DNA of 54,680 bases from Methylobacter sp. (lineage in GTDB: Bacteria; Pseudomonadota; Gammaproteobacteria; Methylococcales; Methylomonadaceae), in contig JAPLRU010000126.1 in assembly GCA_026399025.1 (NCBI GenBank), positions 1 to 54,680 of the forward strand, written 5' to 3'. Within the stretch, counting starts at the first letter, position 1. Every line of letters starts with the position of its first letter. Below the pieces are notes generated by a model. It was not told the origin of the DNA. It ran no database searches and was given only the letters and a program-made list of their open reading frames with translations. Positions 16,520 through 54,680 of the stretch are shown piece after piece. The position numbers and the translations under genes were made by a program.

Positions 16520-16539
16520 GTCTTTAGCCTTTTTTATCC

Positions 16540-18409: not shown

Positions 18410-18437
18410 CTGAGGTATCTATACGTCCCTTATATTG

Positions 18438-20300: not shown

Positions 20301-23300
20301 CTATTCGTTACTCAAGACGCCATGCTTTTTTATGCTCTCCTGCCGGAAAGACTGGAAAAATTCAGGCCTCATTCCAGCCTCGGAATAAAGGACGCGACAA
20401 AAATCGATCAAGGAATTGCAGACGTCGGGTTCCGACAAAAACACCAAATGATTTGAAGCATTCATATCCACTATCGAAAAATGGGGCAGATATTGCTGCC
20501 AGATTTGCCAGTGCGGCTTTTTATCCAGGTCGTAGCCATCCCCGTCGAGTACGAAATAAGGCTCCAACTCGCCCATGTATAAGCCGTTTTTATTGCGAAA
20601 ATAATAGCAATTGACCGACTCCGCCGAGGCCAGCGGAAGCATCCGATAGCGATGCGCTTGGTGGGCTGTTTGCACCTTGGCTTGCTTAGCAATCAGCTCA
20701 TGCATCTGTTCTTCGCTATAAAACAAGCCGCGCGTTTTCGCTAAATCCAGCAATTGCTGCAAAAAGGCCTCATCGCTTAGCGAAACATCTAATTGATCGC
20801 GGTGAATCAATGTTGAGGAAAACGCCTCCGGGTTTTGCATGACCGTGGTTTGCAGCGCAATATTGACGGCCTGCAAAAAATCGTTTTTGGCCGAGTGCTT
20901 AACATCCTTGATCCCGGTAGTATCGAAAGTATCCAGCATCACGATAGTCGCCACCGACTCGCCCCGCTCCTGTAACTGCCGGGTGACTTCGTAGGCAATC
21001 AGCCCGCCTAACGAATAACCGCCCAGATCATAAGGCCCTGTCGGTTGGACCGATTGCATGGCCTGAATATAATAAGCCGCCATTGCGGACACCCCGTGTA
21101 TAGGGGGCTGATCGTTCATCCAACCTCTGGCCTGAATGCCGTAAAAAGGGCGCTCGCATACTTCCGCCAGAATATGGTAGGGCTGCACCCCGCCCAGTCC
21201 GCCATGAAACCAGAATACCGGCTGTCCCCGGCCGTTTTGATTCAGCAAAATAAGCTCGGGAAAGCGGGCGTTGGGCTGAGTGAAAACCGAGCTGTTTACC
21301 AATGTAGCGTAATCCGCAAGCGCAAGCCGAGCAAAAATATCAGCATGATTCTCCCGCAAGTACCCACCCAAGCGGTCAATGCTTCTGTATTCAAATATTA
21401 CGCTCGAAGCGATCTTCCGGCCGGTCAGTTGTTCCAGCGGTTTCAGCATATTCACCAGTCCCAACGAAGTTAAACCCAACTCGAAAAAGTTTCTCCGGCT
21501 ATCGATCCGCTCAATCGGGCAGTCCAATTGATGCGCCAGTATTTTTTTCAGCAACCGTTCCAACTGTTGTGCTTCTGGCGCTTTCTCTTGCTTAGCCGCT
21601 TCCGGTTTATTTTCCGAGCAACCGCTATTGCCGGTCTTGGCAAAAACATAAGTGGGCAGATGCAGCCGTTGCGGCTTAGCCCCGCTGTGTAGCGCTTGCC
21701 AGTCGATGTTGTCTCCGTCGGCCCAGCGCTCGGCAAGCGTAGCCAATCGCGCGGAGTCAAGACTTTGCAGCGAACAGGGCCGATTCCGCGCTGTAGCCTC
21801 GCCCTGCCAATAGTTTTCAAGCCGGTCATTCCCTGCGCCGCCGCGCCCAAGCCATTCCAGTTTCCCGGCCAGTTCCTCAAGCGTTTTAACCTGAAAAATA
21901 CTTCTGTACTTCATGCCTTCCCTGCCGACTTGCAGCGTGTAAGCCAGGGCATTCAAATCCAGCGTGGCGTTTTGCTGAATAAACCGCGCAAGTTTCCGTG
22001 CATATTCCGCCAAGCTCTCGGGCGTCTTTGCCGACAGCGGGATTAAAAAAGCTTCGGGTTGCGTCGTTTGGGACGATACCGGATTGGGCGGATAGTCCTC
22101 CAGCAGCACATGCACATTAGTGCCCCCGTGTCCCAGCGAGGTGACTGCGGCCAAACGCGGTTTGATTGTATTTACCGGCCATGCCTGCAACTTGGTATTG
22201 ACATAAAACGGGCTATTTTCAAAATCGACGTATTCATTGCCCCGCTCGAAATTCAGCGAAGGCGGCATAAACCGATGTTGAAGGCCCAGCAACACCTTGA
22301 TAACGCTCAGTACCCCGGATGCCGCCGTCGTGTGGCCGATGTTGGCCTTGACCGATCCGATGGCGCAATACTGTTTTTTAGCCGTAAATTGTTGAAAGCT
22401 GTGCTTTAACGCATCGACCTCAATCGCATCGCCCAATTTCGTTGCGGTGCCGTGCGCCTCAATATATTGAATATCTTCCACATCGATATGATGATTCTGG
22501 TAAAGCGATGACTGCAATTGGCTTTGCGACAAATAGCTGGGCACGGTCATACCTGCCGTTTGCCCGTTCTGGTTGCTGCCGATTGCCGCAATCGCGCCGT
22601 AAATCGGGTCTTGGTCGCGCTCGGCAGCGTCCAGGCGTTTCAAGATCACCACGCCTGAACCGTCCCCGACAATCATGCCGTCGGCGTTGTTATCGAACGG
22701 ACGGCAAGTGGCCGTCGACGACAGCATTCCGGCATTATTCATCATAATAAAGGCGCGCGGATCGGTATAAATAGTGGCTCCGCCGACTATCGCCAAGTCG
22801 ATTTTGCCGCTACGCAAATACTGACAAGCCACATCCATTGCCACCAACGACGACGAACACGCGGTATTGATGGTCAATGCGGGACCTTTCAAATCCAGGA
22901 AATAAGCAAGGCGCGACGACAGCACGCTGGTATCCGTGCCCAGTAAACTGTGCGTAGACCAATCGGCGGCTTGCGCGCCGCCGCCAACGCTGCCGATAAA
23001 AACGCCTACCGGCTGTTTTTGCAGCGACGACGGCGCTATCCCGGCATCTTCAAGCGCTTTGTAAGTATCTTCCAGCAACACCCGCTGAGGAAAATCCATT
23101 GACGCCGCTTCATCTTGATTGATGCCGAAAAACGCGGCGTCGAAATGTTCCTTGCCTTGCATTTGTCCGTAACGCGCGGGAACCGGCGTTTGCGAGTGCG
23201 CGGCAAAAAAATCGAGCCAGCTTTGTTCCCGGATGCTTTCGATGCAATCTCTTCCCTGCTGCATCAGCGCCCAAAACTCACCGGGATCCGATGCGCCCGC

Positions 23301-23315: not shown

Positions 23316-23359
23316 GCCGATAACCGCAATCTTGTCGGCTACCGACCGACCGGAGCTCT

Positions 23360-26300
23360 CTAGTTCAGGCTTTTTTTTTGAGCGTCGCCCGCTACGCTAA
23401 CGCCCAAAGCTCTGAGGTAGTCAGCCAGTGCGTCCAAGGAATTGCATTCAAACATCACGCTGGTCGGCAAGGTAAGCTGAAATTCGGCGTTGATGGCCTG
23501 CATCAGTTCGACCGCATTGATAGACGTCAGCCCCAGTTCATTGAATTTGTCAGAAGACGACAGATTTTCCCCGGCCAGATTCAAACTATTTACAAACAGC
23601 GCCAGCAATTTTTCCGCTAAAGGGTTTGCAACGACATTTTCGGCCTGGGTTACCGGTAGCGCATTGTCGAGTTTTTCCAGTTGTTGCGGCTGATGTTCGC
23701 TCAGATAGGTTTCCAGATAGCGGGTTAAAGAATCCAATGTGTTATGCGCAAAAATCAAACTGGTCGGTAATGTGAGCCCGAATTCGCCGTTAATCGCTTG
23801 CAGCAGTTCCACCGAATTAATCGATGAAATGCCCAGGTCCTGAAACGTTTCGGCCTGTTCCAGTTCGCCCGGCGGCAACGACAGAGTCGCGTCAAAGAGC
23901 CCGGCAAGCTTGGTTTTCAGTAACGCGAAACGGCTGGCGACTCCCCTATTGACAGGAGATTTGCGCTCGTCAGGATAAGCATCCGCCAGCAGGCTTTCAT
24001 CCAGAATCGGATAGGGTACGTGGCTCAGTTCAAGCATTTCCTGCAACGCAACCGGGTACGGCTTGGGCGCGCGCAACTTAGCCAAATTGTACTGTTCCAG
24101 TTCTGCAACATTGGCGTAAAGGTCTTTACGCAAGCGGAACAACATATAGCTCAACCAGCCCCGGTCAATCGCAATAGCGTTATTAGCGTAATTTCGCCAG
24201 GAATCGCGTACCACTTTGGGACAGTCTTTTACATTCTCCTGATGCTCGGGATCGTACTGAAAATTGGCGATTTGCGGCGACACATCAATGATCTCGTCAA
24301 TCACCAAATGATGTTTGGCCAGGGTTTTGACCCATTGTTCCTGCGTGGGGATATAAATATCGATGCTGGGATCTTCAATCGCACCGTGCAAATTGGCGAT
24401 AAAGTCCATCAACAAGACCCGGCCGTGATTCTTCAAAGAGGATTCGATATTGCTAAACAAGCCATCCTTGTCGGCCACCAAACAACTCACCTCAAACCCG
24501 ATAATCACATCGTAATCGTTTCTGGGGAATTTCACTTTGGAGCTGTCGTGATTGAATATGCGCGCTTGCGCATTGAGACCTTTTTGGCTGATGCGATGAT
24601 TGCCCAACTCGGCCTGCGCCTTGGTAATAGTAAAGCCGTCGGTGTGAACATGCGGATAATGGTTGGCAATCTGGATCACATCGGTACCATGCCCGCAACC
24701 GATGTCCAGCAAACTGCGCATTTGCGTAAAGTCTTCCTTGAAAAACAGCACTTGGCGCATTTCAATCTGTTTGCGCTGAATCAAGGCCATTTCCGCGCGA
24801 TAGTCTTTGGGATTCAAAAACACCCGCGTCATCGAAAAGCCCGGAATCCGCTCCGGAAACGGGCAAAAGGTCAGGTAATCCTCATGAAAATCCTGGTCGC
24901 TGGTTTCGGCGCAATACGTAAACAGCTCAGCCGCTTTCTCGCCCGCGCTGCCTTCGCCTTGGATTATTTCGGGGCTTGCATTCATCATCGTGTCCTTATT
25001 GAAGCTTGTTATTTGTTGAGGTGATTTTTTATTCCGGCAGGTTGCGTTTTCCAACGAATGAGCATCCGGCTTAGTTGCTACGGTCCGCGTATCATCCAGC
25101 CAATAGTCCCGGAGCTCGAAAGGGTAAGTGGGAAGGTGGAGACGCGCCTGCTTATCGACATTATGAGACGGCCAATCGACTTTTTGTCCACGCGCCCAAT
25201 TTTGGGCACGGGTATACGGCTCGGTAGCCGTACAAATGGAAACCTTTGAGCTATCGGCTACGCCTTCAAATACATTATCTTGCGGCCGGTTGCCAAGATA
25301 AGCTTCCGCCTGTTGAATCCACTGATCGCGGCTTGCTGAAACAAAAGCCACGCGGACATTCATCGCGTCCCTGCCGGTTTGCAGGGTATGGGCGATTGAA
25401 GCCTGCGCGTATTCGGGATGTTCCCGCACTGCGGTCAAAAACTCCGCTATCAATGTGCGGCATTGCTGCTGCGTTTTCGCGGAGAACGGCAGCACTTGCA
25501 GTTTGTCCTGAACAACGGCTTGAATCTGTTTTGGCCGGTATTCTTCAAGCAGCAAATGCGCGTTATTGCCGCCTGAACCGTAAGAATGAAGACCGGCCAA
25601 ACGCAGTTGCGCTTGCCGCGGCCAAGGCCGGTTTTCGGTCGCCAATTGACAGGGCTGGTGTTTGCTGTCTATATCGGGACTGCTGTGCTGAAAACCGCGA
25701 ATTTTATGTATCGTATCGGTATCGAAGCTGCGAATAATCTTGAACAATGCGCCGAACGCCGAGGCCGACTGCATATGTCCGAGCGTCGGTTTCAGCGTAC
25801 TGACTGTGCAATTGCCGTGCTTTAAGCTGACATTTTGCTGTTGGGCCAGGGTCTGTAAAGCGCGGTTAAACGCCGACCATTCGGCAATATCCGTTACCGG
25901 ATTCGCCATGCCCTGGGCTTCGATATACTCCAGGTTACGCGGGTCTATACCCGCTTCGCGATAACACTGCAAAATCAGCTCGGTATGCGAAGAAATATTC
26001 GGCGAAGCAATGGACATGCCGCCCTGTCCGTTGAAATTGACGGCAGTATGCTTTAGTACCGCATAAATCGCATCGCCGTCCGCTTCCGCTTGCGCCAAAG
26101 GTTTCAACAAAATACTGGCGACGCCCTCGGCGGGCAGATAACCGTCGGCATCCCGGCCGAAGGAGTTTATCGAACAGCTGGTGCTCATTTGTCCCATCGC
26201 GGACAACGAAATGAAGGTCTCCGGCCGCAACAGCAGGTTGGCGACACCGGCCACGGCCTGACTGCACTCGCCGGAACGCAACGAAGCCACCGCCCGGTGA

Positions 26301-26959
26301 ATGGCTACGGCGCCGCCGGAACACATGGTGTTCATGTATTCGCTAGGGCCGCGCCAGTCGAAAAAATAGGAAACCTGGTTCGCAATCATGCTCGGCGCAT
26401 TGCCGATGCCTTCGCTTTGCGCTTTGTCCCATTGGGACAACTTAACGTATTCGTTTTCCTCCGCGCCGACAAACATCCCGGTGCGGGTTTTGCGCAAGGA
26501 CTCGGGCGCGTAACCGGCGTCTTCCAGGGTATGGTATACCGACATCAACAACAGGCGTTGCCTCGGGTCCAGACGTTTGGCATCGTTCGGCAACATCTGA
26601 AAAAAACGGGCGTCGAAACCGCGAATATCCGGAATGAAGCCGCCCCATTTAGTATGGCTTTTCATCGCATCCGCGGCACTGGGATCGTAATGCTTTTGCC
26701 AGTCGAAACGGCTTTTGGGTATCTCTTCCAATAAGTCTTCATCGTTATCCAGCGCCCGCCAAAAATCCTGCACGGACCGGCTTTTCGGCAAATAGCCGGA
26801 AAGTCCGATGATGGCTATCGGCTGGGGAATGGGTGCAGCGTCTTTCCTGTTTCCGGCAACCGTCTGCGTATTTTGCGTGCTCCCGGCATCATCGGGAGGC
26901 TGCTTAGATAACTCCGAGAGCCTGGCTTTTATCTGTTCTAATATTTCCGGGTTATGCAT
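23360..26959 (-). CDS. Trans-AT polyketide synthase, KS0-methyltransferase-ACP-ACP
   Basis: One module of 1199 residues. KS (about 46-475): Cys213 is present in NTMCSGG, but the first catalytic His is replaced by Gln349 (EAQGMANP in place of EAHGTGT), while KPTLGH keeps the second. Such KS0 domains pass the chain on without elongating it. The methyltransferase (about 660-985, motif LLDIGCGHGTDV) differs from the C-methyltransferases of the other modules (LEIGAGTGGT) and resembles stand-alone SAM enzymes, so O-methylation is plausible. Two ACPs follow with Ser1046 (DLGISSIN) and Ser1146 (ELGLTSIN); both lack the usual Asp before Ser. The gene follows the flavin monooxygenase by 7 bp and probably fuses with the terminal module by frameshift. 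Confidence 0.88.
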   Translation of the reverse strand: MHNPEILEQIKARLSELSKQPPDDAGSTQNTQTVAGNRKDAAPIPQPIAIIGLSGYLPKSRSVQDFWRALDNDEDLLEEIPKSRFDWQKHYDPSAADAMKSHTKWGGFIPDIRGFDARFFQMLPNDAKRLDPRQRLLLMSVYHTLEDAGYAPESLRKTRTGMFVGAEENEYVKLSQWDKAQSEGIGNAPSMIANQVSYFFDWRGPSEYMNTMCSGGAVAIHRAVASLRSGECSQAVAGVANLLLRPETFISLSAMGQMSTSCSINSFGRDADGYLPAEGVASILLKPLAQAEADGDAIYAVLKHTAVNFNGQGGMSIASPNISSHTELILQCYREAGIDPRNLEYIEAQGMANPVTDIAEWSAFNRALQTLAQQQNVSLKHGNCTVSTLKPTLGHMQSASAFGALFKIIRSFDTDTIHKIRGFQHSSPDIDSKHQPCQLATENRPWPRQAQLRLAGLHSYGSGGNNAHLLLEEYRPKQIQAVVQDKLQVLPFSAKTQQQCRTLIAEFLTAVREHPEYAQASIAHTLQTGRDAMNVRVAFVSASRDQWIQQAEAYLGNRPQDNVFEGVADSSKVSICTATEPYTRAQNWARGQKVDWPSHNVDKQARLHLPTYPFELRDYWLDDTRTVATKPDAHSLENATCRNKKSPQQITSFNKDTMMNASPEIIQGEGSAGEKAAELFTYCAETSDQDFHEDYLTFCPFPERIPGFSMTRVFLNPKDYRAEMALIQRKQIEMRQVLFFKEDFTQMRSLLDIGCGHGTDVIQIANHYPHVHTDGFTITKAQAELGNHRISQKGLNAQARIFNHDSSKVKFPRNDYDVIIGFEVSCLVADKDGLFSNIESSLKNHGRVLLMDFIANLHGAIEDPSIDIYIPTQEQWVKTLAKHHLVIDEIIDVSPQIANFQYDPEHQENVKDCPKVVRDSWRNYANNAIAIDRGWLSYMLFRLRKDLYANVAELEQYNLAKLRAPKPYPVALQEMLELSHVPYPILDESLLADAYPDERKSPVNRGVASRFALLKTKLAGLFDATLSLPPGELEQAETFQDLGISSINSVELLQAINGEFGLTLPTSLIFAHNTLDSLTRYLETYLSEHQPQQLEKLDNALPVTQAENVVANPLAEKLLALFVNSLNLAGENLSSSDKFNELGLTSINAVELMQAINAEFQLTLPTSVMFECNSLDALADYLRALGVSVAGDAQKKSLN
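23371..23379 (-). other. Nine-A slippery run at the PKS gene junction, candidate -1 frameshift site
   Basis: On the coding strand the upstream PKS gene ends CAA AAA AAA AGC CTG AAC TAG. A -1 shift on A AAA AAA would read AAG CCT GAA CTA and continue through the missing KS N-terminus (SVADKIAVIGMACRC) into the downstream gene. Both lysyl-tRNA slippage on A-runs and RNA polymerase slippage on nine As are established mechanisms. A one-base indel in the assembly would look the same. Confidence 0.7.
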
Positions 26960-26966
26960 ATTTTTC

Positions 26967-28070
26967 CTAAAGATAAGCTGAGACCAGCTTTTTCAAATGA
27001 GGCAGCGAAGATTTCACCATCGCGTAATCCACGCCAAAATCGACCAGGCAGGCGATATCGTTGACACCCACTTGAAGCGCATGATCGACAACCTGTTTGG
27101 CTTCTTCCACGGTTCCGAACAAGGCTGCGGTTTTTGAGTAACGATGGTAAGCGTACTCCAGCATTTTGGCTTTTTCCGACTCGCCAATATCGTTAACGCC
27201 TTTACTGCTGCCCAATCCCGATGCGACATGCGCATCGAGAAAACTTTTAATGTATTCCATAAACGGCTTTTTGATTGCGGTTTCGACCGTCTGTTTATTT
27301 TCATGAATAAAGGTATGCAGCATCAACGAGATAATCCCTGTTTGCGGATCGTAACCGGCTTGCTCGCGCGCCTGCCGGTATAACGCAAATTTCTTGCCCA
27401 TCGCATCCAGATCGACCCCGGAAAGCATGGTAAAAATATTGTATCCCTGTTTTCCCGCATAAATATAAGCCGCATCGCTTTGTACCGCGAGCAGCCAAAC
27501 ATTGAGTTCCGGCTGTAGCGGACGCGGATAAACCCGAATCGGGATCTCCACGCCCTGAGGTCCCATGAAGTTTACGCTTTCGCCGCGCCAGAGTTTCTGC
27601 ACGATAGGAATCCGTTCATGACAAACATCGCGGCGATTTTCATAAGTGCCGGGAGACAACACAAAATCCTTGATCTGCCAGCCCGAGCCGAAACCCAAAT
27701 CGATCCGGCCGTTGGATAAAATATCGTTCATCGCCCAGGCTTCGACGACCTCCACCGGATGATGCAGCGGCAACGAAATTCCCGCAGTGCGAAAACGAAT
27801 GCGCTCGGTTTGCGGAATCAGGTAGGAGGCCACAAGCGCGGCATTGGCAAAAACCGAACCGTATTCAAAAAAGTGCCGCTCCGGCAGATAGATCGCGGTA
27901 AAGCCTTCACGGTCGCCAAACAGCGTCACATCCTTTGTGAATTGATATTTTTCCCGGTCCGAAATGTCTTTTCGAACATCCGAGAAAAACAAAAAACTGA
28001 ACGAGACAGCAGGCTGCACGGGGTTCGCAGGTTGAGGCTTAAGCCCCAACAGTTCTTCGATGGTTTTCAT
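26967..28070 (-). CDS. Luciferase-like flavin monooxygenase of natural-product type
   Basis: A TIM-barrel FMN-dependent oxygenase of the luciferase-like group found inside or beside PKS and NRPS lines (MupA-like). FFSDVRKDISDREKYQ, YLPERHFFEYG and the LGFGSGWQIKDFVLSPG segment are characteristic. ATG at 28070 is preferred over an in-frame TTG at 28073. The gene lies in a gap of about 11 bp after the 17-kb PKS gene and 7 bp before the KS0 module, so it is made with them. Relatives in trans-AT systems carry out alpha-hydroxylation or Baeyer-Villiger oxygen insertion on ACP-bound chains; which applies here is not decidable from sequence. A reductase partner is not seen. Confidence 0.88.
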   Translation of the reverse strand: MKTIEELLGLKPQPANPVQPAVSFSFLFFSDVRKDISDREKYQFTKDVTLFGDREGFTAIYLPERHFFEYGSVFANAALVASYLIPQTERIRFRTAGISLPLHHPVEVVEAWAMNDILSNGRIDLGFGSGWQIKDFVLSPGTYENRRDVCHERIPIVQKLWRGESVNFMGPQGVEIPIRVYPRPLQPELNVWLLAVQSDAAYIYAGKQGYNIFTMLSGVDLDAMGKKFALYRQAREQAGYDPQTGIISLMLHTFIHENKQTVETAIKKPFMEYIKSFLDAHVASGLGSSKGVNDIGESEKAKMLEYAYHRYSKTAALFGTVEEAKQVVDHALQVGVNDIACLVDFGVDYAMVKSSLPHLKKLVSAYL

Positions 28071-28081
28071 CAATACTACCT

Positions 28082-45109: not shown

Positions 45110-45180
45110 CGCGCCGTGCGCGCCTTCTGCGGTGCTTTAAAACACCTATCGCGTTTAAAACCTTAAGCGCGCACGGCGCG
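45110..45180. repeat. GC-rich inverted repeat in the gap between the dioxygenase gene and the large PKS gene
   Basis: Perfect 14-bp arms CGCGCCGTGCGCGC (45110-45123) and GCGCGCACGGCGCG (45167-45180) enclose 43 nt that contain two TTTAAAAC words. It sits in the 236-bp gap 45017-45252 between two genes of the PKS operon, the longest gap inside the cluster. No ORF or obvious promoter is seen there. A hairpin in the operon mRNA, or a repeat insertion, are both possible. Confidence 0.75.
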
Positions 45181-45252
45181 ACCTCCGGTCACACGTCGTA
45201 AATTTCGTCTATTTCAATTGTTTGAAAACTTAGCTCGGCTACCCGTTAACCG

Positions 45253-46059: not shown

Positions 46060-46083
46060 GAAATTGTTCCTAAAAAATTATTA

Positions 46084-49000
46084 TCAAAGACCCAAAAGCC
46101 TGTCGGCTTCATGAATATCCAATCCCCCGCCATGCAGCTGTTGAAAAACCTCCAGCAGGGCGTCTTGCCGTACTGCGCCGCCCTGCTGCGCCGCGATATG
46201 CGCGGCCAGTTTGTTGACGGTCGCATGATCGAACACGGCCGTCGTCCGTAGCGCGACGCCCAGCTCACGGTTGGCTTGGCTAATGATTTCCAGCGCCAGA
46301 ATGGAGTCCACGCCCATATCGATGTAAGCGCAATCGGGGTTGATTTTTTCCGCTTCAACTTCAATCACCGCAGCGACAATGTGCCTGAGCTTTTGCGCCA
46401 GCATGTTTAGTTTTTCGTCATCTTCCGGCATATCCACAATGCTTGACGCCGCCATTGCCACCGGCTCCGGCTCTTCATGCAAAGAAATTCGGCCGTCGCT
46501 TTGCGCCGCAAATACGTTCTGGCTGACTCCCGTTTCAACCACAGGCGCCAAGGTTTGCACCGACACAAAACCTTCATCTTCCAGCAACCGTTGCCACATC
46601 GGGACACTGAGCAAGGGCGAGCCCGGCAGCCGGTTATGCCGATCTTCCGCCAGCCACCAGCCTTTCAGCAAGCCGAAGGTCAACGTGGAAAAGACATGAG
46701 TTTCCACCGCTTCATTAATAATAAATTTGCCGCCGATACGTAACAGCGACTTGGCGTTTTTCAGCGTGGCGTTCAGGTTGCGCGTGGCGTGCAGCACATT
46801 GGTCGCAATCAGCAAATCGGTGTTTTGGCGAGCAAATCCCTGAGCTTTGACCGCCTTTTCTATATCCAGAACATGAAAATCGACGAATATATAATGGCCG
46901 TACTGCTTTCTGCCGTGCTGAATGAACTTCAATGAAACATCGGTGTAGTCATAGCGAAGATAATCCCGATACGGCCCAATAGCCTTAAGCACCGCAGCGC
47001 TGGTGCCGCCGGTGCCTGCGCCTATTTCCAGCAGATGGAGTTTTTCGCCTTCGGACAGTTTGGGCAACCGTTCGCGAATGAAGGCCACGACCTCGTCGAC
47101 CACGAGCCGATTGTAATAATCCGAGATTGCGTTTTGCTGATAAATCTTCTCAACCAAAGCCATTGAAGCGTTCGGGAACATCACTTCGGTCGCCGGAATA
47201 TTGCCTTGCAAAATCGGGATCATAGTGTCCAGGCATCGCCACAACAACTGAAAGTTAGCGGCCAGTTCGGGATGTTTGTCGCACCAGTAATCAACGGTAT
47301 GCCGTTCAACTTGTTGCGAAACCCGCTCCATACTGCGTATCCTGTCGCCGTCAATGCTCAGATAACCCGCTTTTTGCAGAATGTCCAGCAATGCGTCATA
47401 CAGCAAATCGTACTCGGCAATCAGCCGGATGCGGGCTTTCAATTGGTCTTTGCCGTACTCTTCCTGAGCTTGTCGGAAGCAGCCCATTTGCTGAAATGCG
47501 TTCAGCAAACCGGCGCTGCCCAGCTCGGCCAAATCATCGAAAGCATCCGAATAGCGGACCAGCGGATCGATTGCCGGCTCGGTTTTTTCTAACGATTCGA
47601 CAGTTGTTTTTTCCACGTACCAGTACGGCTTTTTATCGAAGGGATAGGTCGGCAGGGAAATACGTTTTGCCGTCTGATGCCGGTACAACAAGGCTTCCCA
47701 GTCGATGTCGGCACCCGTCAGCCAAAGCTTGGCCAGTTGCTCGTAATCCGATAACGCCACAAGTACGGCAGCGTCAGCCGGAGCAACATTATCCCCGGCT
47801 TGGCCGGTAAAAAACACTGCGTCTCCCGGCTCCGCTTGTCCATTATGTTGCAAAAAGGCGCGCAGTTTCATGCCCACTTCCTGCTTGTGCTTGACGACAC
47901 AAACAAAACGTTCGGGCATCGCTTCCCTGCCCGTTTGCAAGGTGTAGGCAAAATCCTGCAACTGAAGCGCGTCTTGATGCTTTTCCCAAAACGCCAGTAT
48001 TTTTTCCACATAGCAAACCAGCCGCTCCGGCGTTTTAGCCGATATCGGGATAATGTACGGCCCCAATATCGGACTCGCGCTGTAGGCCGTTGACGGCGTA
48101 GCATAATCTTCCAGGATTACATGGGCATTGGCGCCGCCTGCCCCGAACGAGCTGATCGCGGCCCTTCTGGCTTGTCCGGCCTGCTTGGGCTCCCATTTCG
48201 CCAAGCTTTGCTGAACAAAAAACGGCGAATCGGCAAAATCGATTTTGGGATTAAGCTTTTGCGCATGCAGCGATGGCGCTAAGGTCTTGTGCTTCATCTG
48301 CAACAAGATCTTAGTCAATCCCGAAATACCTGCGGCCGCACCCAGATGGCCGATATTCGATTTTACCGAGCCTAAAGCGCAGGACTGTTTTTCGACCGCC
48401 GACTGCCCAGTGGCCTCGGCCCAAGCCCGGCACAAACCCTCAAACTCAACCGGGTCGCCCAACGCGGTTCCGGTGCCGTGCGCTTCGACATAGCCGATGC
48501 TGCCGGGGTCTATCTTGGCCTTGGCGAGGGCGAGTTTGATCAGCTCCGCCTGCGCTTTCGGATTAGGCACCGAATAGCCGTTGCTGCGTCCGCCGTGATT
48601 GACCGAGCTGCCCTTGATGACCGCGTAAATGGGGTCGCGGTCGGCAACGGCTTGCGCGAAGGGCTTCAACAGTACCGCGCCGACGCCTTCTCCGGGCACA
48701 AAGCCATCCCCTTTCTCGCCGAAACTGTGGCATTTGCCGCTAGGAGACAACATCTGGCCCTGACACATCGCCACGTATTGATGGGGATGCACATTAAACG
48801 AAGCGCCCCCGGCCAGCGCCATTGAACACTCGCGGTTGTTCAGACTCACGCAGGCCTGATGAATCGCGCTCAACGACGATGAACAGGCGGTATCGACCGG
48901 ATAGCTGGGGCCGTTAAGATTCATGAAATAGGACACCCGGTTGGCGATAGACCAAAGCCCGCTGCAAGGCGTATAAGAATTGCCTTTCTCCCACTCCTGC

Positions 49001-52000
49001 GGCCCCCACAGGGAGTAACCGTAATTGCTGATACCGGCAAAAACGCCGACGTTCATATCGCCGGTTTCCGCCAGTTTTTTGCGCGTATAACCGGCATCTT
49101 CAAACGCAGCCCATGCGGTTTGCAGGAATAAGCGCTCGCAAGGGTCGATCAACTTGGCTTCGCGCGGCGAAATGTTAAAAAAGAAAGCATCAAAGCAATC
49201 GATGTCGTCAACAAAACCGCCCTTTGTGCAGTACATTTTTCCGTGCATGGCCTGAGTGCGGTCCGGGTCGTAATACTCGTCCGGGTTCCAACGGTTGGGC
49301 GGAACTTCAGTGATCGAATCCCGGCCTGCCTTCAGGTTATCCCAGAAAGCTTCCAGATTGTCCGCTTCGGGATAGATACCGCTGACGCCGATAACCGCAA
49401 TGTCGAACGGGGCGTCATCGTCCCTATCTTGCCTGTTGCCCGCCTGACACGCTTGATTGCTCACAGGGGCCTGCGTTGCCGTATTCCCCGCGATACCGAC
49501 TTGTGCGGCCCTTTGGTAGATGTCGCCGACACTCGGCGTTTTTTTGGCTTCGGCCGCCGAGCAAGAGGCCTGTGCGACGCCGGTTTTATCCGCAACTGCA
49601 CAGGCCTTCGCCGGTACCTGCCGACCGGAGAGATACCCGGTCAACGCCGCCAAGTTAGGGTATTCAAAAAACAGCGTTGCCGATAGCGGCCCGAACCTAG
49701 CGATCAGTTTTTCATTGAGCGCGGTAATCATCAACGAATCCAGACCGAACTCATCGAGCTGACGGTAAACGCCGATTTCCTCGATCGGCAACGTGCTCAC
49801 ATCGGCAACGGCTTGTTTCAGGAACGCCTCAATATCCCGGCGCGCATTAACAAAAGTCATCGGGGCAAGCGTCTCTGCCGCAACAACTCCAGTACTTGGG
49901 GCGGCGTGTCCTATCGCTTCAGCCCTGCTGTAAATATCGCCGACGCCTGAAGACTGTTTGGCTGGGGTTGCCTGCGAAGTTGCTTGATTATTCGCCGAAC
50001 GGCCGGTGCTGTGTTCAAGCTCCGTCATCTTAGCCGACGCCGCTTGTGCAGTTGGTTGACGTGCCGAAAGATACTCGGTCAACGCCGCCAGATCCTGATA
50101 CTCGAAGAACAGCGTTGCCGACAGCGGCCCGAACCTCGCAACCAGCTTCTCGTTAAGCGCGGTAATCATCTTAAGCGCGGTAATCATCAGCGAATCCAGG
50201 CCGAACTCGTCAAATTGACGATGAACGCTGATTTTATCCAGCGGCAATCGGCTCACCTCGACAACGGCCTGTTTTAAAAACATCTCAATATCCCGGCATA
50301 CCGGCGCGGAAGAAGCCACGATTGCTTCTAAAACGCCGACGCTACGGGCGATGCCTTGGACGGCTGCGTGTCCTATCGCCTCGGCTTTTTGGTAAATATC
50401 GCCGACACCGGCCGCGGCTGTCCGACCGGATACCTGTTCGCTCACTGAGTGATCGGCGCTGTGTGCAAGCACGGCCACCGGTTGTGCGGCTTGCTGCCGG
50501 GTTGCAAGATACTCGGTCAATGCCGCCAGATTGTGATACTCAAAAAACAGCGTTGCCGACAGCGAGCCGAAGCGGGCGACCAGCTTTTCGTTAAGCGCGG
50601 TAATCATCAGCGAATCCAGGCCGAACTCGTCAAATTGACGATGAACGCTGATTTTATCCAACGGCAACCGGCTCACATCGGCCACGGCTTGTTTCAGGAA
50701 CGCCTCAATATCGTGGCGCACCGGCATAACGGTCTTTGCCTCGACACTATCGGCATTCCAAACGCCGTGTTCCGCGCTATTAAGCTGACCGACGGTTTCG
50801 GCTTGCCGGTAAATATTTTGAACATCGAAACTTTTGCTCTCGTTTTTTTTGACCCGTTGCGGCTCAGTAAACTGTTGTTCAACGAACTGCCGGATTTTTT
50901 GCCTGTTGCCGGTGAGAAACATGCATTGCGTCAAGCCGGATTGCAAAACGCTTGCCCAAGCCTGAATCCCGATCTCACTGGATAATCCGTGAACGCCCAT
51001 ATCGGCCGCCATGGTTTCCAGCTTGCTGTCGGCAAGCTGCATTCCGCCTTCCCGCCAAAGCGCCCAATTGACGCTGAACATGCGACTGCCGCCTATTCCG
51101 CCTTGCGCGGCGAAAGCGTCGAGAAAACCGTTGGCGTAGGCGTAATCGGCTTGCCCGACATTACCGATCACCGAACTGGCGGAAGAGAAGAAACTCAAAA
51201 AATCGACCTTTTCCCCCGCCAGCGCCTGTTCCAAACAGAGCGTTCCCTGAATCTTGGCGGCCAATACGTCCCGGCATTGGCTTTTGGTTTTTTTCAACAG
51301 GAAAGCGTCCTGTGCGCAACCGGCAAAATGAAAAATCCCGGCGATTCCGCCCAGTCGGCTTCTGGCTTGGGCAACTACATTTTTTGCCTGTTGCGCATCG
51401 GCAATATCGGCTTGCAGGTAAACGACTTCGCACCACGTTGAATTCAACTTTTGCAGCTGTTGCAATTTGTCCGCCGATAAGGGCCTGCGGCCGGTCAAGA
51501 AAACGCGGATGCGATTTTGCTGCGTCTTTGCCTGCCGCTGTAGATATTCGCAAAACAACAGCCCGAGTCCGCCCGCTCCGCCAATCAATAAATAAGTGCC
51601 CTGCTCTTTAAGCGCCAACGGTTTGATTGGCGCGTTGTCAAGATCGACGCTCCGCCAGATTTTTACTTCCCTGACCAATTCGCCGTTGGCATCGCGCCGG
51701 TAGCGGACTTCAACCTGATTGGCCGCGCCGTCTCGGTATTCCCTGTCCGCAATTTGGGGCAATAGCGCGGCTTGCGGTAATTCCAGAGTCTGACAAAAGA
51801 ACGCCGGATTTTCCCGATTCAGCGTTTTGGCAAAGCTTCCGATGGCTTGATTTAAAGCGTAATCCCTGGCTGTCGAGCGGACAAAAGCATAAATCACGCG
51901 GATTTTTTCCGGACGGGCTTTCTGTCCCATCAAAGCCTGAGCGATAAACAACATTGAATAAAAACCGCGATCCAGCTGCTCGGTCAGCTCATCAAACGGC

Positions 52001-54680
52001 TGTTGCGACCAACAATGCAAAATGCGCGTCGGCAGCAAATCGCGCTGTGCGAGAAGATCGGCCAGTTGCCGATAGTCTTCCGGTTCTCCCGCACGAATCT
52101 GAATAACAGCGTCAGCCCCCGGTACAGACCCTTGTGGAGCGACCGAAAAATCCTCGCCCGAAGTCACCAGCACCACCGGCGTATCTTGCCGGCCGGACAG
52201 ATCCTGTTGTCCGGAACCGAATATCAACAGCGGGCCGGTCGGATGGCTTTCAAGCGAAGGATTTAACGGCGATGGTTGCCAGCAAGGTTGCCACCAGGTT
52301 TCTTCCTCTATGCTTGGTCTAGGCATTGCAGCGCCCGGTGCCGCCTGGACTTTAGCCTGGGGCTGTAGCGTTTGCGGTACCGGGAACCAAAAACGGGAGC
52401 GGTCGAACGGATAGCCGGGCAGCGGGACGCGATAACGCACTTCGTCGGCGTACAGTTTCAGCCAGTCTATATCACGACCTTCCCGATACAACGCCGCCAA
52501 AGCATCCAGCCTTGCCAGCGTCTCCGGCAGCGGCAAACTGCGGGCATTGAGCTGCTTCAGCCATAGTTCCGCGTCGCCTGAAAGCTCGGACGTTTTGCGC
52601 GGCATGGCGTCGATGTCGGCTTCGCGCAATTGCCGGAGCAAGTCCTCGCGACTTTGGGCAACCAAAGCAAAACGCTGCCCGAAGTGCTCTCTACCTACAT
52701 GCAAGGTATAAGCAATATGCTCCAAGGAATATTGCCTTCCCTGCGTTTCCAGGCAGGCGGCCAGATCGTGTATTTTTTGTTTGAGCGAATAGTCGGTTTT
52801 TGCCGACAGGCAAATCAGCACCGGCCCTTCTCCCCTTACCGGCCTGGAGTCCAGCCGCACCGGCGATTCTTCCAATACCAGATGCGCATTGGTTCCGCTC
52901 AAGCCAAAGCCGCTGACCGCCGCCCTTCTTGGCAAATCCCCGTGCTTTTTCCACTCGCATAAGCGGGTATTGATATGAAACGGGCTGTCGGCAAAATCGA
53001 TATGCTCGTTGGCTTCGGAAAAATTCAGCAACGGCGGAATTTGATTATGGGCAAAGCATTGCAATACCTTGATAACGCCGGCAACACCGGCTGCCAGCGA
53101 AGCATGGCCGATATTGGTTTTTACCGAGCCCAGCAGGCAAAACCGCTTTTTGTCGGTGTAACGCCGGAACGCTTTGCTTAAGGCTTCAACTTCGACAGGA
53201 TCGCCCAGTTTGGTGCCGGTACCGTGCGCTTCGACATAGCCGATGGTTTCCGGATTAATGCCCGCCCGCTGATAAACCGCCACTTCCAGCTCGGTTTGCG
53301 ACAGCGAGCTCGGCGCGGTCATGCCGTTGGTTTTGCCGTCCTGATTGACGCCCGAAGCCTTCAATACGCCGTAAATATGGTCTTTATCGCGTATCGCGGC
53401 ATCCAGTTTTTTTAGCACAATCACGCCGACGCCTTCGCCGAACACAAAACCGTCCGCTTTTTGATCGAAAGCTTTGCATAGTCCGTCGGCTGCCAGCATC
53501 TGCGCTTTATCGGCGAGCGTATGAAAATGCGGCGTCGTGCAAAGATAGACGCCTCCGGCCAAAGCCATATCGCATTCGCCGGCAAGAATGCTTTGCCGGG
53601 CCGAATGCATCGCCACCAAAGAAGAGGAACAGGCCGTATCGATTGCAATGCTGGGGCCTTTAAGATTCAGGAAATAGGAAATCCGCGCCGGCACCACCGC
53701 CGGAGAATTTCCCCAGAACGACTGCGCTTCGCCGAAATAGCCGCTCTCGCGCATGTTGATCAGGTAATCGCTCATGCCGACGCCGGCAAAGACGCCGCAT
53801 GTCAGTTCCCGAAGCTGGGAGGGTGTATAACCCGCATCTTCCAGCGCGGCGTAGGATTCCTCAAGAAACAGGCGTTGCTGCGGATCGGCCTGTTCGGCTT
53901 CGGCGCCCGACCAATTGAAAAACAGCGGGTCGAACTGCTCGATGTCGTCCAGAAAACCCGCGCGGTAACCTTGCGGGAAACTGCCTTCGGCCCAGCGTCC
54001 CGTCGGCGGCTCGCTAATGCTGGATGTTCCTGAGGCCAGTTGCTCCCAAAATTCATGCACATTGCGGGAACCTGAAAACCGTCCCGACATGCCGATGATA
54101 GCTATGTCGTCCTGTTGCATTTCGGCTATGTTGAACGACCCAGAGGCTGCGGATTCGCTTTCTCTATTATCGGCTTCATCCGCCGATTGCGCTTCCGGTG
54201 CAGCGGCGACCTCCGGCGCGCTCAGGTGCTCGCGGTAATGGTCATAGATAAAAGCCGATAATTCGGTAACGCTCGGATAATCAAACAGGGCTGTGACCCG
54301 CACATTAATGCCGAACTGTTGGTTAATCAGGCTTAAAAAATCAATACCGGAAATCGAGTCCAAGCCGTAATCGGCAAACTGTTTTTCCATCACCAAGTGC
54401 CGGTCGTTCAAGCCCAGAATATGGAATATCGCATCCGTAACCTCTTGCTGAATCCGTTGTTTCAGTGTTTCCGGTTCGGGACGACTTGTTTGCCGAGCGA
54501 CAACCGGTTGCGCTGCCGCGGGTGTCGGATCGTTTGCAAACGCAGCTTCGGAACGCGCGGCCTTGTCTTCCCGCAGTTCCGCAATCAGGATATGCTGGCC
54601 CGGTCCCTTTTCAGCACCGCTCAAACCTTGCGGCGGAGCGACACTAAAACCTTGTTGCTGCAACAACGCGACCCACATCT
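46084..54680 (-). CDS. Trans-AT polyketide synthase (partial; N-terminal part beyond the window)
   Basis: The reading frame is open through the right edge. Counting residues from 54678: the last 40 residues of a C-methyltransferase; ACP (Ser108); KS1 (190-607, Cys350, both His present)-KR (790-1240, GGAGGLG, Tyr1179)-three ACPs (Ser1356, Ser1496, Ser1648); KS2 (1757-2190, Cys1932, EAHGTGT)-MT (2372-2727, LEIGAGTGGT)-ACP (Ser2792). The last 25 residues (VFQQLHGGGLDIHEADRLL) form an amphipathic helix of docking type. There is no AT, DH or ER. The three ACPs are near copies, each preceded by a VGDIY-AE-IGHAA-like linker; the middle one has a six-residue duplication. The second module has no KR, so its beta-keto group should persist. 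Confidence 0.94.
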   Translation of the reverse strand, partial: MWVALLQQQGFSVAPPQGLSGAEKGPGQHILIAELREDKAARSEAAFANDPTPAAAQPVVARQTSRPEPETLKQRIQQEVTDAIFHILGLNDRHLVMEKQFADYGLDSISGIDFLSLINQQFGINVRVTALFDYPSVTELSAFIYDHYREHLSAPEVAAAPEAQSADEADNRESESAASGSFNIAEMQQDDIAIIGMSGRFSGSRNVHEFWEQLASGTSSISEPPTGRWAEGSFPQGYRAGFLDDIEQFDPLFFNWSGAEAEQADPQQRLFLEESYAALEDAGYTPSQLRELTCGVFAGVGMSDYLINMRESGYFGEAQSFWGNSPAVVPARISYFLNLKGPSIAIDTACSSSLVAMHSARQSILAGECDMALAGGVYLCTTPHFHTLADKAQMLAADGLCKAFDQKADGFVFGEGVGVIVLKKLDAAIRDKDHIYGVLKASGVNQDGKTNGMTAPSSLSQTELEVAVYQRAGINPETIGYVEAHGTGTKLGDPVEVEALSKAFRRYTDKKRFCLLGSVKTNIGHASLAAGVAGVIKVLQCFAHNQIPPLLNFSEANEHIDFADSPFHINTRLCEWKKHGDLPRRAAVSGFGLSGTNAHLVLEESPVRLDSRPVRGEGPVLICLSAKTDYSLKQKIHDLAACLETQGRQYSLEHIAYTLHVGREHFGQRFALVAQSREDLLRQLREADIDAMPRKTSELSGDAELWLKQLNARSLPLPETLARLDALAALYREGRDIDWLKLYADEVRYRVPLPGYPFDRSRFWFPVPQTLQPQAKVQAAPGAAMPRPSIEEETWWQPCWQPSPLNPSLESHPTGPLLIFGSGQQDLSGRQDTPVVLVTSGEDFSVAPQGSVPGADAVIQIRAGEPEDYRQLADLLAQRDLLPTRILHCWSQQPFDELTEQLDRGFYSMLFIAQALMGQKARPEKIRVIYAFVRSTARDYALNQAIGSFAKTLNRENPAFFCQTLELPQAALLPQIADREYRDGAANQVEVRYRRDANGELVREVKIWRSVDLDNAPIKPLALKEQGTYLLIGGAGGLGLLFCEYLQRQAKTQQNRIRVFLTGRRPLSADKLQQLQKLNSTWCEVVYLQADIADAQQAKNVVAQARSRLGGIAGIFHFAGCAQDAFLLKKTKSQCRDVLAAKIQGTLCLEQALAGEKVDFLSFFSSASSVIGNVGQADYAYANGFLDAFAAQGGIGGSRMFSVNWALWREGGMQLADSKLETMAADMGVHGLSSEIGIQAWASVLQSGLTQCMFLTGNRQKIRQFVEQQFTEPQRVKKNESKSFDVQNIYRQAETVGQLNSAEHGVWNADSVEAKTVMPVRHDIEAFLKQAVADVSRLPLDKISVHRQFDEFGLDSLMITALNEKLVARFGSLSATLFFEYHNLAALTEYLATRQQAAQPVAVLAHSADHSVSEQVSGRTAAAGVGDIYQKAEAIGHAAVQGIARSVGVLEAIVASSAPVCRDIEMFLKQAVVEVSRLPLDKISVHRQFDEFGLDSLMITALKMITALNEKLVARFGPLSATLFFEYQDLAALTEYLSARQPTAQAASAKMTELEHSTGRSANNQATSQATPAKQSSGVGDIYSRAEAIGHAAPSTGVVAAETLAPMTFVNARRDIEAFLKQAVADVSTLPIEEIGVYRQLDEFGLDSLMITALNEKLIARFGPLSATLFFEYPNLAALTGYLSGRQVPAKACAVADKTGVAQASCSAAEAKKTPSVGDIYQRAAQVGIAGNTATQAPVSNQACQAGNRQDRDDDAPFDIAVIGVSGIYPEADNLEAFWDNLKAGRDSITEVPPNRWNPDEYYDPDRTQAMHGKMYCTKGGFVDDIDCFDAFFFNISPREAKLIDPCERLFLQTAWAAFEDAGYTRKKLAETGDMNVGVFAGISNYGYSLWGPQEWEKGNSYTPCSGLWSIANRVSYFMNLNGPSYPVDTACSSSLSAIHQACVSLNNRECSMALAGGASFNVHPHQYVAMCQGQMLSPSGKCHSFGEKGDGFVPGEGVGAVLLKPFAQAVADRDPIYAVIKGSSVNHGGRSNGYSVPNPKAQAELIKLALAKAKIDPGSIGYVEAHGTGTALGDPVEFEGLCRAWAEATGQSAVEKQSCALGSVKSNIGHLGAAAGISGLTKILLQMKHKTLAPSLHAQKLNPKIDFADSPFFVQQSLAKWEPKQAGQARRAAISSFGAGGANAHVILEDYATPSTAYSASPILGPYIIPISAKTPERLVCYVEKILAFWEKHQDALQLQDFAYTLQTGREAMPERFVCVVKHKQEVGMKLRAFLQHNGQAEPGDAVFFTGQAGDNVAPADAAVLVALSDYEQLAKLWLTGADIDWEALLYRHQTAKRISLPTYPFDKKPYWYVEKTTVESLEKTEPAIDPLVRYSDAFDDLAELGSAGLLNAFQQMGCFRQAQEEYGKDQLKARIRLIAEYDLLYDALLDILQKAGYLSIDGDRIRSMERVSQQVERHTVDYWCDKHPELAANFQLLWRCLDTMIPILQGNIPATEVMFPNASMALVEKIYQQNAISDYYNRLVVDEVVAFIRERLPKLSEGEKLHLLEIGAGTGGTSAAVLKAIGPYRDYLRYDYTDVSLKFIQHGRKQYGHYIFVDFHVLDIEKAVKAQGFARQNTDLLIATNVLHATRNLNATLKNAKSLLRIGGKFIINEAVETHVFSTLTFGLLKGWWLAEDRHNRLPGSPLLSVPMWQRLLEDEGFVSVQTLAPVVETGVSQNVFAAQSDGRISLHEEPEPVAMAASSIVDMPEDDEKLNMLAQKLRHIVAAVIEVEAEKINPDCAYIDMGVDSILALEIISQANRELGVALRTTAVFDHATVNKLAAHIAAQQGGAVRQDALLEVFQQLHGGGLDIHEADRLLGL
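49640..50740 (-). repeat. Tandem triplicated ACP-linker units
   Basis: Three units of about 420-460 bp, each encoding a linker plus an ACP with the identical EFGLDSLMITAL core. The two upstream units (around 50187-50255 and 50607-50675) are almost identical at DNA level over about 70 bp, differing at only a few positions; the third (around 49680-49800) has diverged more. This points to successive duplication or gene conversion. Confidence 0.85.
50153..50188. repeat. 18-bp perfect tandem duplication inside the middle ACP
   Basis: TTAAGCGCGGTAATCATC occurs twice in immediate succession (50153-50170 and 50171-50188). On the coding strand it turns SLMITALNEKL into SLMITALKMITALNEKL, adding six residues to helix II directly after the phosphopantetheine serine. 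The other two ACPs of the triplet lack it. Confidence 0.9.

What the first reader, a model, noticed from the sequence alone, without database searches (positions are those of the whole stretch)
20301..54680. Large trans-AT polyketide assembly line in a presumed methanotroph-like genome
At least 34 kb of colinear PKS genes encode eight KS domains with KR, DH, MT and ACP domains but no AT, which defines a trans-AT system. Four modules are methylating (including the truncated one at the edge), four are ketoreducing, and only one has a DH. I do not recognise this module order as a named pathway. The visible part predicts a chain with several alpha-methyl groups, several hydroxyls and unreduced ketones, modified by two oxygenases.
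Basis: partly seen in the sequence, partly recalled or inferred. Interest (0 to 1): 0.85.

Follow-up and report, generated by a model that had tools for sequence, protein, structure and literature searches.

The report
Uncharacterised trans-AT polyketide cluster in Methylobacter
A methane-eating bacterium carries a large, apparently working enzyme assembly line for an unknown natural product, and two neighbouring enzymes hint that the product may be stored in a phosphate-capped form and uncapped outside the cell.

Summary
In detail: 8 KS, 4 KR, 1 DH and no AT lie on the minus strand of 20301-54680. One count is off: there are four full methyltransferases plus the tail of a fifth, and one of the four is of the O-MT family. 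The window stops at a 5-N assembly gap inside a gene. The line continues to C79:80254: 14 KS in five PKS genes. The genome has two pmoA-family genes and shares its genus with Candidatus Methylobacter oryzae KRF1, which carries the unbroken cluster (dN/dS 0.05-0.21). AMbin10, a MAG of another genus, has it on at least two contigs.

The missing AT is on contig C41 here, but about 6 kb behind the last PKS gene in KRF1. The D/F junction (KR-ACP, MupA-family monooxygenase, non-elongating KS) matches the alpha-hydroxylation bimodule of thiomarinol (oxygenase 55%, KS0 59%), with an O-MT added.

All three genomes also carry a kinase of rifampin-phosphotransferase-like architecture and an exported-looking metallophosphatase. 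This suggests, unproven, a phosphorylated protoxin. The product is unknown; MIBiG and TransATor could not be run. Verdict: new member of a known kind, with an untested self-protection hypothesis.

The parts
18438..20048 (-). exported-looking purple-acid-phosphatase-like metallophosphatase, directly downstream of the TE gene
   Evidence: PF00149 E 9e-13; no NCBIfam family, weak PDB matches to purple acid phosphatases, best E 1.5e-6; GDSG, GDNAY, GNHE, FHHP, GHAH blocks kept in 3 of 3 orthologues; next to the TE gene in KRF1 and AMbin10 too; lipoprotein-like signal read by eye
20301..23315 (-). gene G: KS14-ACP-TE (1004 aa)
   Evidence: KS14 at 22626-23336, TE PF00975 E 7e-30 at about 20676-21224
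23360..26959 (-). gene F: KS13 (predicted non-elongating, EAQGMAN) - O-MT - ACP - ACP (1199 aa)
   Evidence: KS region 59% to the thiomarinol KS0 (50.3% over the longer stretch 52-622); MT best PDB 6hp1, StiE, StiD
23930..25042 (-). embedded O-methyltransferase region of gene F
26967..28073 (-). gene E: trans-acting luciferase-like monooxygenase, MupA/Atu3671 family (predicted alpha-hydroxylase)
   Evidence: TIGR04020 404.7 bits against cut-off 244.45; 54.8% to the pTML1 MupA-family enzyme
28082..45016 (-). gene D: KS9-DH-KR-cMT-ACP / KS10-KR-ACP / KS11-cMT-ACP / KS12-KR-ACP (5644 aa)
45253..46059 (-). gene C: PhyH-type Fe/2-oxoglutarate oxygenase (HFD at residue 121, so hydroxylase-like rather than halogenase-like; motif meaning recalled)
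   Evidence: PF05721 E 1.8e-29
46084..54680 (-). 3' part of gene B: (tail of the cMT of module 6)-ACP / KS7-KR-ACP-ACP-ACP / KS8-cMT-ACP; cut by 5 N at 54681-54685, gene continues to C79:61271
22626..23336 (-). KS14
26087..26824 (-). KS13, HGTGT His replaced by Gln (EAQGMAN)
31190..31921 (-). KS12
34538..35245 (-). KS11
38288..38989 (-). KS10
44102..44824 (-). KS9
48652..49404 (-). KS8
53398..54111 (-). KS7
51049..51600 (-). KR of module 7
   Evidence: PF08659 E 3e-45
40919..41410 (-). KR of module 9
   Evidence: PF08659
42128..43006 (-). DH of module 9, the only DH in the window
   Evidence: PF21089 and PF14765
35894..36442 (-). KR of module 10
   Evidence: PF08659
28817..29362 (-). KR of module 12
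   Evidence: PF08659
46723..47031 (-). C-MT core of module 8
   Evidence: PF08242; NVLHA motif in the KRF1 copy
39734..40063 (-). C-MT core of module 9
   Evidence: PF08242; NVLHA motif
32588..32902 (-). C-MT core of module 11
   Evidence: PF08242; best PDB matches of the MT part DisA, CurJ, AprA

Best explanation
It is the downstream part of a complete, apparently functional trans-AT polyketide synthase cluster of a Methylobacter-type methanotroph. Shown by sequence: five colinear PKS genes run A-B-D-F-G (C79:80254 down to 20301) with 14 KS and no built-in AT; the line ends in a thioesterase; a discrete malonyl-type AT is encoded in the same genome, and near the PKS genes in two relatives. 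Inferred: the AT loads malonyl units on the ACPs; C-methyl branches come from SAM through embedded C-MTs; the KS4-FMO module oxidises the chain once; at the gene D/gene F junction the MupA-family enzyme hydroxylates the alpha carbon of the beta-keto intermediate on the last ACP of gene D; KR12 then reduces the beta-keto group, non-elongating KS13 takes the chain over, and its embedded O-MT methylates one of the two new hydroxyls; KS14 adds the last unit and the TE releases the acid or lactone. A kinase of RPH-like architecture and an exported-looking phosphatase travel with the cluster and may cap and uncap the product (see novel case).
For: No AT in the modules: PF00698 has 4 places in the genome, none on C79. 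Domain orders. AT P0012: TIGR00128 323.2 bits against cut-off 260.9, GHSLG and GAFH motifs (malonyl meaning recalled). In KRF1 the AT sits at C93:216018-217091, TE gene end 210293; in AMbin10 one 646-aa frame matches both type II TE and AT and lies divergent to gene A. MupA-family membership over the curated cut-off. In thiomarinol plasmid pTML1 the MupA-family gene stands directly upstream of a PKS gene starting with a KS0 whose KS region is 59% identical to KS13, with the same EAQGM motif; the two other KS matches listed in that stretch are 33-34%. MupA was shown in vitro to be an alpha-hydroxylase at such a junction (PMC10952193, passages and section 7). Embedded O-MT: best PDB matches 6hp1 (E 6e-114), StiE, StiD, whereas module 11's MT matches DisA, CurJ and AprA. 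Purifying selection on 12 of 12 tested gene pairs, dN/dS 0.049-0.214.
Against: In this genome the AT, type II TE and kinase are on a different contig (C41), and C79 runs from the phosphatase straight into housekeeping genes, so physical clustering is seen only in relatives. Gene B has a 5-N gap. Module 1 has about 400 aa of unknown function and no recognised loading domain, so the starter is unknown. No KS-clade (TransATor) or MIBiG comparison was possible. Which hydroxyl the O-MT methylates is a guess. According to the paper seen, alpha-hydroxylase activity of this enzyme family was assayed for MupA and OocM; it has not been assayed here.
Confidence: 0.8

Rival explanations
1. The RPH-like kinase does not protect the cell but works in biosynthesis: it phosphorylates a hydroxyl as a leaving group for ring formation, or leaves a permanent phosphate ester. 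The phosphatase is a phosphate-scavenging neighbour.
For: P0013 passes no NCBIfam function-level cut-off, and the prodigiosin ligase models score above the RPH model (RedH 279.7 of 1350 bits, PigC 262.3 of 1300, RPH 226.5 of 999), so its substrate class is open. A 'putative phosphoenolpyruvate synthase' MisA was proposed as a possible helper in ring formation in misakinolide (PMC5772238, passage). Distant phosphatase homologues (37-48%, in two pieces each) occur in 3 of 61 genomes (G005, G038, G045), none of which had a match to the gene E enzyme.
Against: Kinase and phosphatase are both present, under purifying selection (0.153, 0.148), in 3 of 3 genomes found with the cluster; the phosphatase directly follows the TE gene in all three.
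Confidence: 0.35
2. The MupA-family enzyme or the FMO domain inserts oxygen into the backbone (Baeyer-Villiger) instead of hydroxylating; for the luciferase-like enzyme this is the rival to alpha-hydroxylation.
For: The FMO domain's best PDB match is 8odw, a 'polyketide synthase modules-related protein'; PKS Baeyer-Villiger enzymes exist (OocK and 'LmbC_OX' are named in PMC10952193).
Against: For the luciferase-like enzyme: membership in TIGR04020, KS0 partner and junction position as in TmlA/TmpA. For the FMO domain this reading stays open.
Confidence: 0.12
3. The cluster is an already characterised pathway under another name.
For: MIBiG could not be searched; trans-AT pathways are numerous, and most subscription papers are not in the library.
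Against: The scan of genome contigs (84,980 species, two short peptide patterns from the gene F MT) gave 70 loci; only KRF1 (91%) and AMbin10 (81%) exceed 62%. The Methylobacter genus survey that used antiSMASH and MIBiG calls its polyketide clusters 'unexplored' (PMC12810054, passages). None of the listings of ten text searches names it.
Confidence: 0.07

Closest known systems
Mupirocin/thiomarinol alpha-hydroxylation bimodule (MupA-MmpD/MmpA; TmlA-TmpA)
   Same: KR-ACP end of one PKS gene, discrete MupA-family flavin monooxygenase gene, next PKS gene starting with a KS0; against thiomarinol the oxygenase is 55% and the KS region 59% identical, same EAQGM motif, oxygenase gene directly before the KS0 gene
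   Different: here the KS0 module carries an embedded O-methyltransferase and two ACPs and is followed by a KS-ACP-TE gene; the fetched thiomarinol stretch shows no hit to this O-MT at E 1e-15
Embedded PKS O-methyltransferases (StiD/StiE; PDB 6hp1)
   Same: sequence family (StiE 4e-53, 6hp1 6e-114); 39 further loci with 43-62% best-segment identity, L075-L113, most in PKS-like surroundings by KS hits
   Different: placed behind a MupA-type KS0; of 54 loci examined (L073-L126) only the KRF1 and AMbin10 orthologues have oxygenase, a KS of 80% or more to KS13, and MT in this order; Methylosinus OB3b has a looser version fused in one protein
PKS oxidation modules (KS-FMO-ACP; PDB 8odw)
   Same: FMO domain in gene A after KS4 with best PDB match 8odw
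   Different: the ACP is on the next protein; the following KS5 has EGQGIGT instead of EAHGTGT in G000 and KRF1
Rifampin phosphotransferase (RPH) architecture
   Same: ATP-grasp N-terminal, phosphohistidine domain C-terminal, His737 (SHAA) and Lys20 (GGKG) kept in 3 of 3 orthologues, best PDB 5fbs (PMC4844700, passages)
   Different: far below RPH cut-offs, middle domain not matched to RPH by the searches run, encoded with a biosynthetic cluster
Calyculin/phosphocalyculin protoxin (CalQ)
   Same: idea of a phosphotransferase capping a trans-AT product that a phosphatase later uncaps (PMC5754374, passages)
   Different: there the phosphatase activity was found in the sponge extract; here a phosphatase gene is beside the PKS; CalQ was not compared by sequence

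Membership tests
trans-AT polyketide synthase | modules lack an integrated AT | tested here: met
   PF00698: 4 places in the genome, none on C79; inter-KS segments show none
trans-AT polyketide synthase | discrete AT supplied in trans | tested here: met
   P0012, TIGR00128 over cut-off; on C41 in this genome, beside the cluster in KRF1 and AMbin10
trans-AT polyketide synthase | KS linkers of the RhiE type, tandem ACPs, non-elongating KS | tested here: met
   PF22336 in 14 of 14 inter-KS segments scanned (module 1 marginal: 27.3 bits against 27); 2, 3 and 2 ACP matches in modules 2, 7, 13; KS13 and KS5 motifs
trans-AT polyketide synthase | KSs fall in trans-AT substrate clades | not testable with these tools
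   no labelled KS reference set; only KS13 was placed, by 59% identity to the thiomarinol KS0
alpha-hydroxylation bimodule | MupA-family oxygenase in trans at the junction | tested here: met
   TIGR04020 404.7 bits against 244.45; gene between D and F
alpha-hydroxylation bimodule | upstream module ends KR-ACP, downstream gene starts with KS0 | tested here: met
   module 12 KR-ACP; KS13 EAQGMAN as in thiomarinol EAQGMGN
alpha-hydroxylation bimodule | catalyses alpha-hydroxylation | not testable with these tools
   needs an enzyme assay
rifampin phosphotransferase-type kinase | ATP-grasp first, catalytic His domain at the C-terminus | tested here: met
   PPDK_N 54-192, PEP-utilizers 704-773; 5fbs best
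rifampin phosphotransferase-type kinase | passes the RPH equivalog cut-off | tested here: not met
   226.5 bits against 999; so 'RPH-like architecture', not RPH
purple acid phosphatase | Metallophos fold with the metal-ligand blocks | tested here: met
   PF00149 52/49.5 bits over 21.5; five blocks in 3 of 3 (block meaning recalled)
purple acid phosphatase | purple-acid-phosphatase N-terminal domain | tested here: inconclusive
   PF16656 20.8/24.0 bits, below its cut-off 30; no NCBIfam family; PDB matches weak, best E 1.5e-6
kinase/phosphatase protoxin system | kinase and exported phosphatase act on the cluster's own product | not testable with these tools
   co-occurrence only

The most novel reading that the evidence does not exclude
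The cluster encodes a phosphate-capped polyketide protoxin with both halves of the switch in the producer itself. The cytosolic RPH-like kinase phosphorylates a hydroxyl of the finished polyketide (or an intermediate), keeping the methanotroph safe, and the exported metallophosphatase encoded right behind the thioesterase gene removes the phosphate outside the cytoplasm to release the active compound. The alpha-hydroxylation/O-methylation junction may create the pharmacophore.
Probability: 0.4. Interest if true: 0.68.

Novelty: new member of a known kind. Interest (0 to 1): 0.5.

Why it matters
Methanotrophs of this group consume methane in many habitats, but the genus survey calls their polyketide clusters unexplored (PMC12810054, passages). 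A 14-KS line conserved in records of two genera, one member being a named strain (Candidatus Methylobacter oryzae KRF1), gives a directly testable product. If the kinase/phosphatase pair acts on the product, it would be a compact self-protection system and a handle for finding phosphorylated polyketides that extraction may miss.

Tried and rejected
AT missing because the line is broken: rejected, a discrete AT exists. Gene B as two genes: rejected, the split is the 5-N gap. Gene F MT as an alpha-C-methylase: rejected on PDB neighbours.

Module 1 as a degenerate AT: the approx. 400 aa between the KS1 linker and the DH-like domain have no Pfam match; profile comparison with five ATs aligns GSGSG with GHSLG but at probability 3.6 and E 0.012. 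Left open.

P-type ATPase as cluster-specific: its close orthologue is beside cluster genes in the three genomes, but 10 of 61 genomes have matches at E <= 1e-100, including paralogues in G000. Not counted as a part.

G009 and G018 as carriers of the same cluster: rejected; their MupA-family enzyme is 64-65% identical but the PKS matches only at 32-45%. Nonomuraea kinase homologue (37.8%): the fetched 32 kb gave no other hit to my query set at E 1e-15, so no help. Plasmid search with whole gene F returned mostly matches to the KS part.

No structure prediction or fold search was run. MIBiG, antiSMASH and TransATor are not available.

On checking the draft against the calls I corrected: the KS E-value range, the MT count (tail only in the window), the identity range for G009/G018, the wording on phosphatase homologues, and the reason given for not folding.
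Full report
Setting. The window is bases 1-54680 of contig C79 of a 5.23-Mb, 138-contig genome. C79 is 136,348 bases long and continues to the right; the window ends where 5 N begin. The genome has two places over the cut-off for the pmoA/amoA family PF02461, with 0 of 14 control genomes ringing. The sister genome G010 is given as same genus. Its contig is identical in length (219,563) and gene E position (202509) with NZ_RYFG02000120.1 of Candidatus Methylobacter oryzae KRF1.

The assembly line. All PKS genes are on the minus strand, in the order A (61268-80254, 6328 aa), B (46084-61271, interrupted by the N gap), D (28082-45016), F (23360-26959), G (20301-23315), with a PhyH oxygenase between B and D and a luciferase-like monooxygenase between D and F. 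Segment-wise Pfam scans and motif reading (gene B's motifs were read in the KRF1 copy) give:
A = KS1-unknown-DH-like-ACP / KS2-DH-KR-cMT-ACP-ACP-second DH / KS3-DH-KR-ACP / KS4-FMO. The second DH of module 2 is a second Pfam stretch whose place after the ACPs I read by eye from the translation.
B = ACP / KS5-cMT-ACP / KS6-cMT-ACP / KS7-KR-ACP-ACP-ACP / KS8-cMT-ACP.
D = KS9-DH-KR-cMT-ACP / KS10-KR-ACP / KS11-cMT-ACP / KS12-KR-ACP.
F = KS13-oMT-ACP-ACP.
G = KS14-ACP-TE.
No enoylreductase family appeared in these scans. KS13 reads EAQGMAN and KS5 EGQGIGT where the other twelve read EAHGTGT or close variants, in both G000 and KRF1. The loss of this His is the usual sign of a non-elongating KS (recalled). 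For KS13 this is backed by the thiomarinol KS0; for KS5 it is an inference.

Is it real and working? KRF1 has every gene A-G plus phosphatase in the same order, unbroken, at 83-97% protein identity. dN/dS is 0.049-0.214 for eight tested pairs on C79 (gene B by its 3' part) and 0.096-0.171 for kinase, AT, type II TE and TPR gene. A third genome, the MAG Candidatus Methylumidiphilus alinenensis AMbin10 (its methanotrophy is recalled, not tested), has the end of D (by eye), the oxygenase, F, G, phosphatase and TPR gene on one contig. On another it has gene A, divergent to a frame matching type II TE and AT, then the kinase and the P-type ATPase.

The AT. The genome's PF00698 places are two AT regions in larger frames on C65 and C107, a fabD-like one on C88 beside a KS, and a free-standing 357-aa one on C41. 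The last is 85% identical to the KRF1 gene that lies about 6 kb behind the TE gene, scores as a malonyltransferase and carries GAFH. Hence no AT is missing; in this assembly it is on another contig. The C41 end and the C79 stretch beside the phosphatase match neighbouring parts of the same KRF1 region, so either a rearrangement or an assembly break lies there; I cannot decide.

The junction between D and F. P0008 is over the curated cut-off of TIGR04020, the MupA/Atu3671 family. Of 80 annotated or unannotated plasmid records with a match, the best is an unannotated Nostoc locus (62.2%) and the best annotated one is the MupA-family gene of thiomarinol plasmid pTML1 (54.8%). The pTML1 gene is directly followed by a PKS gene starting with a KS0 whose KS region is 59% identical to KS13 (50.3% over a longer stretch); the two other KS matches listed in that stretch are 33-34%. 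The pTML1 paper states that tmlA stands immediately upstream of tmpA as mupA does of mmpA, and names OnnC and PedJ as relatives (PMC3069032, passages). MupA is an experimentally shown alpha-hydroxylase acting on the beta-keto intermediate before ketoreduction, and OocM is a second assayed case (PMC10952193, passages and section 7). By anatomy the Methylobacter junction works the same way. The addition is the embedded MT: its nearest solved structures are 6hp1 and StiE and StiD (that StiD/StiE are O-methyltransferases is recalled), while module 11's MT goes with DisA, CurJ and AprA (C-methyltransferases, recalled). So I expect an O-methylated hydroxyl near the carboxyl end. A looser version, oxygenase-KS-MT in one protein (40, 35 and 35%), is in Methylosinus trichosporium OB3b, so the logic is not unique.

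Kinase and phosphatase. Beside the AT lies P0013, with ATP-grasp at the N-terminus and the phosphohistidine domain at the C-terminus, which is the order that distinguishes rifampin phosphotransferase from PEP synthase (PMC4844700, passages). Its best solved matches are 5fbs and its companions 5fbt and 5fbu, which that paper gives as RPH-Lm. It passes no function-level cut-off; the prodigiosin ligase models RedH and PigC score higher than the RPH model, so its substrate is open. Behind the TE gene lies P0009, a metallophosphatase with all five ligand blocks and a lipoprotein-like N-terminus in G000 and KRF1 (read by eye; weaker in AMbin10). Its family evidence is Pfam PF00149 over cut-off, the purple-acid-phosphatase N-domain below cut-off, no NCBIfam family and weak PDB matches. 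Among 61 genomes of relatives, a full-length kinase match occurs in 2 (G000, KRF1), plus 2 partial matches (G052, G055). A phosphatase of 90% identity or more occurs in the same 2, and 3 others have distant homologues. Neither screen included AMbin10, which has both. Against my reading: with three related carriers, co-occurrence may reflect linkage rather than joint function, and distant phosphatases occur in genomes without the gene E enzyme. Phosphocalyculin is the precedent for a phosphate-capped trans-AT product (PMC5754374, passages); MisA is the precedent for another proposed role (PMC5772238, passage).

How far others have it. A scan of 84,980 species genomes with two peptide patterns from the gene F MT profile gave 70 loci; records of the window's own genome may be left out by the tool. 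I compared 54 of them (L073-L126) with cluster proteins; the 16 left out (L127-L142) matched the query only weakly (E 3e-8 or worse). Only L073 (KRF1) and L074 (AMbin10) have oxygenase, KS0, MT, TE, phosphatase and TPR gene together. L080 (a Planctomycetota MAG) has oxygenase 53%, MT 55%, TE 49% and an FMO hit of 28-29% in another arrangement. In a sample of 398 genomes of the phylum, the MT had a match at E <= 1e-15 only in G000 and one other genome.

Known or new. A trans-AT PKS, a MupA-type bimodule, embedded O-MTs and PKS oxygenase modules are all known kinds. Their combination here matches no pathway I could find, but MIBiG was not available and the paper library holds open-licence papers only (search listings). 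The genus survey PMC12810054 (passages) reports large unexplored polyketide clusters in Methylobacter, so the presence of such a cluster is not itself a surprise. I rate it a new member of a known kind, with the kinase/phosphatase pair as the part most worth testing.

Noticed in passing
C79:77225-78853 (-), gene A aa 468-1010, right of the window: About 400 aa between the KS1 linker and a DH-like domain with no Pfam match; 74% identical in KRF1 and 57% in AMbin10; faint resemblance to an AT that has lost its nucleophile.
   Followed up: partly
C79:80769-82868 (+), right of the window: P1B-type ATPase next to gene A, also beside the cluster in KRF1 and beside the kinase in AMbin10; by eye it lacks the usual CPC motif (MLGPVS; motif recalled).
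   Followed up: partly
54681-54685: Five N at the window edge split gene B inside a C-MT; the ATG at 54678 is not a gene start.
   Followed up: yes
17700-18450 and C41 end (L031): In KRF1 the phosphatase gene is followed by TPR gene, kinase, AT and type II TE; here that block is at the end of contig C41 while C79 continues into ispD/ispF/enolase genes: rearrangement or assembly break.
   Followed up: partly
72-17702: Housekeeping-type genes, names inferred from Pfam: bioF/H/C/D-like, dinG-like helicase, multicopper oxidase, accA, tilS, CTP synthase, DAHP-synthase family, enolase, ftsB-like, ispD, ispF.
   Followed up: no
L050-L055 (genomes G009, G018): Two same-genus genomes carry a different PKS locus with a MupA-family enzyme 64-65% identical and a discrete AT 51-52% identical nearby.
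   Followed up: partly
L157:14851-18603 (Methylosinus trichosporium OB3b plasmid pOB3b1): MupA-family oxygenase, KS and this MT type fused in one annotated protein in another methanotroph.
   Followed up: partly
L155 (Nostoc sp. UHCC 0926 plasmid pn1): Oxygenase 62% and KS region 58% adjacent in an unannotated cyanobacterial PKS locus; no hit to the O-MT at E 1e-15.
   Followed up: no
L032, L033 (contigs C65, C107): The genome has other PKS-like genes with built-in AT: a frame of 3600 aa nearly filling contig C65 and one of 1297 aa on C107.
   Followed up: no
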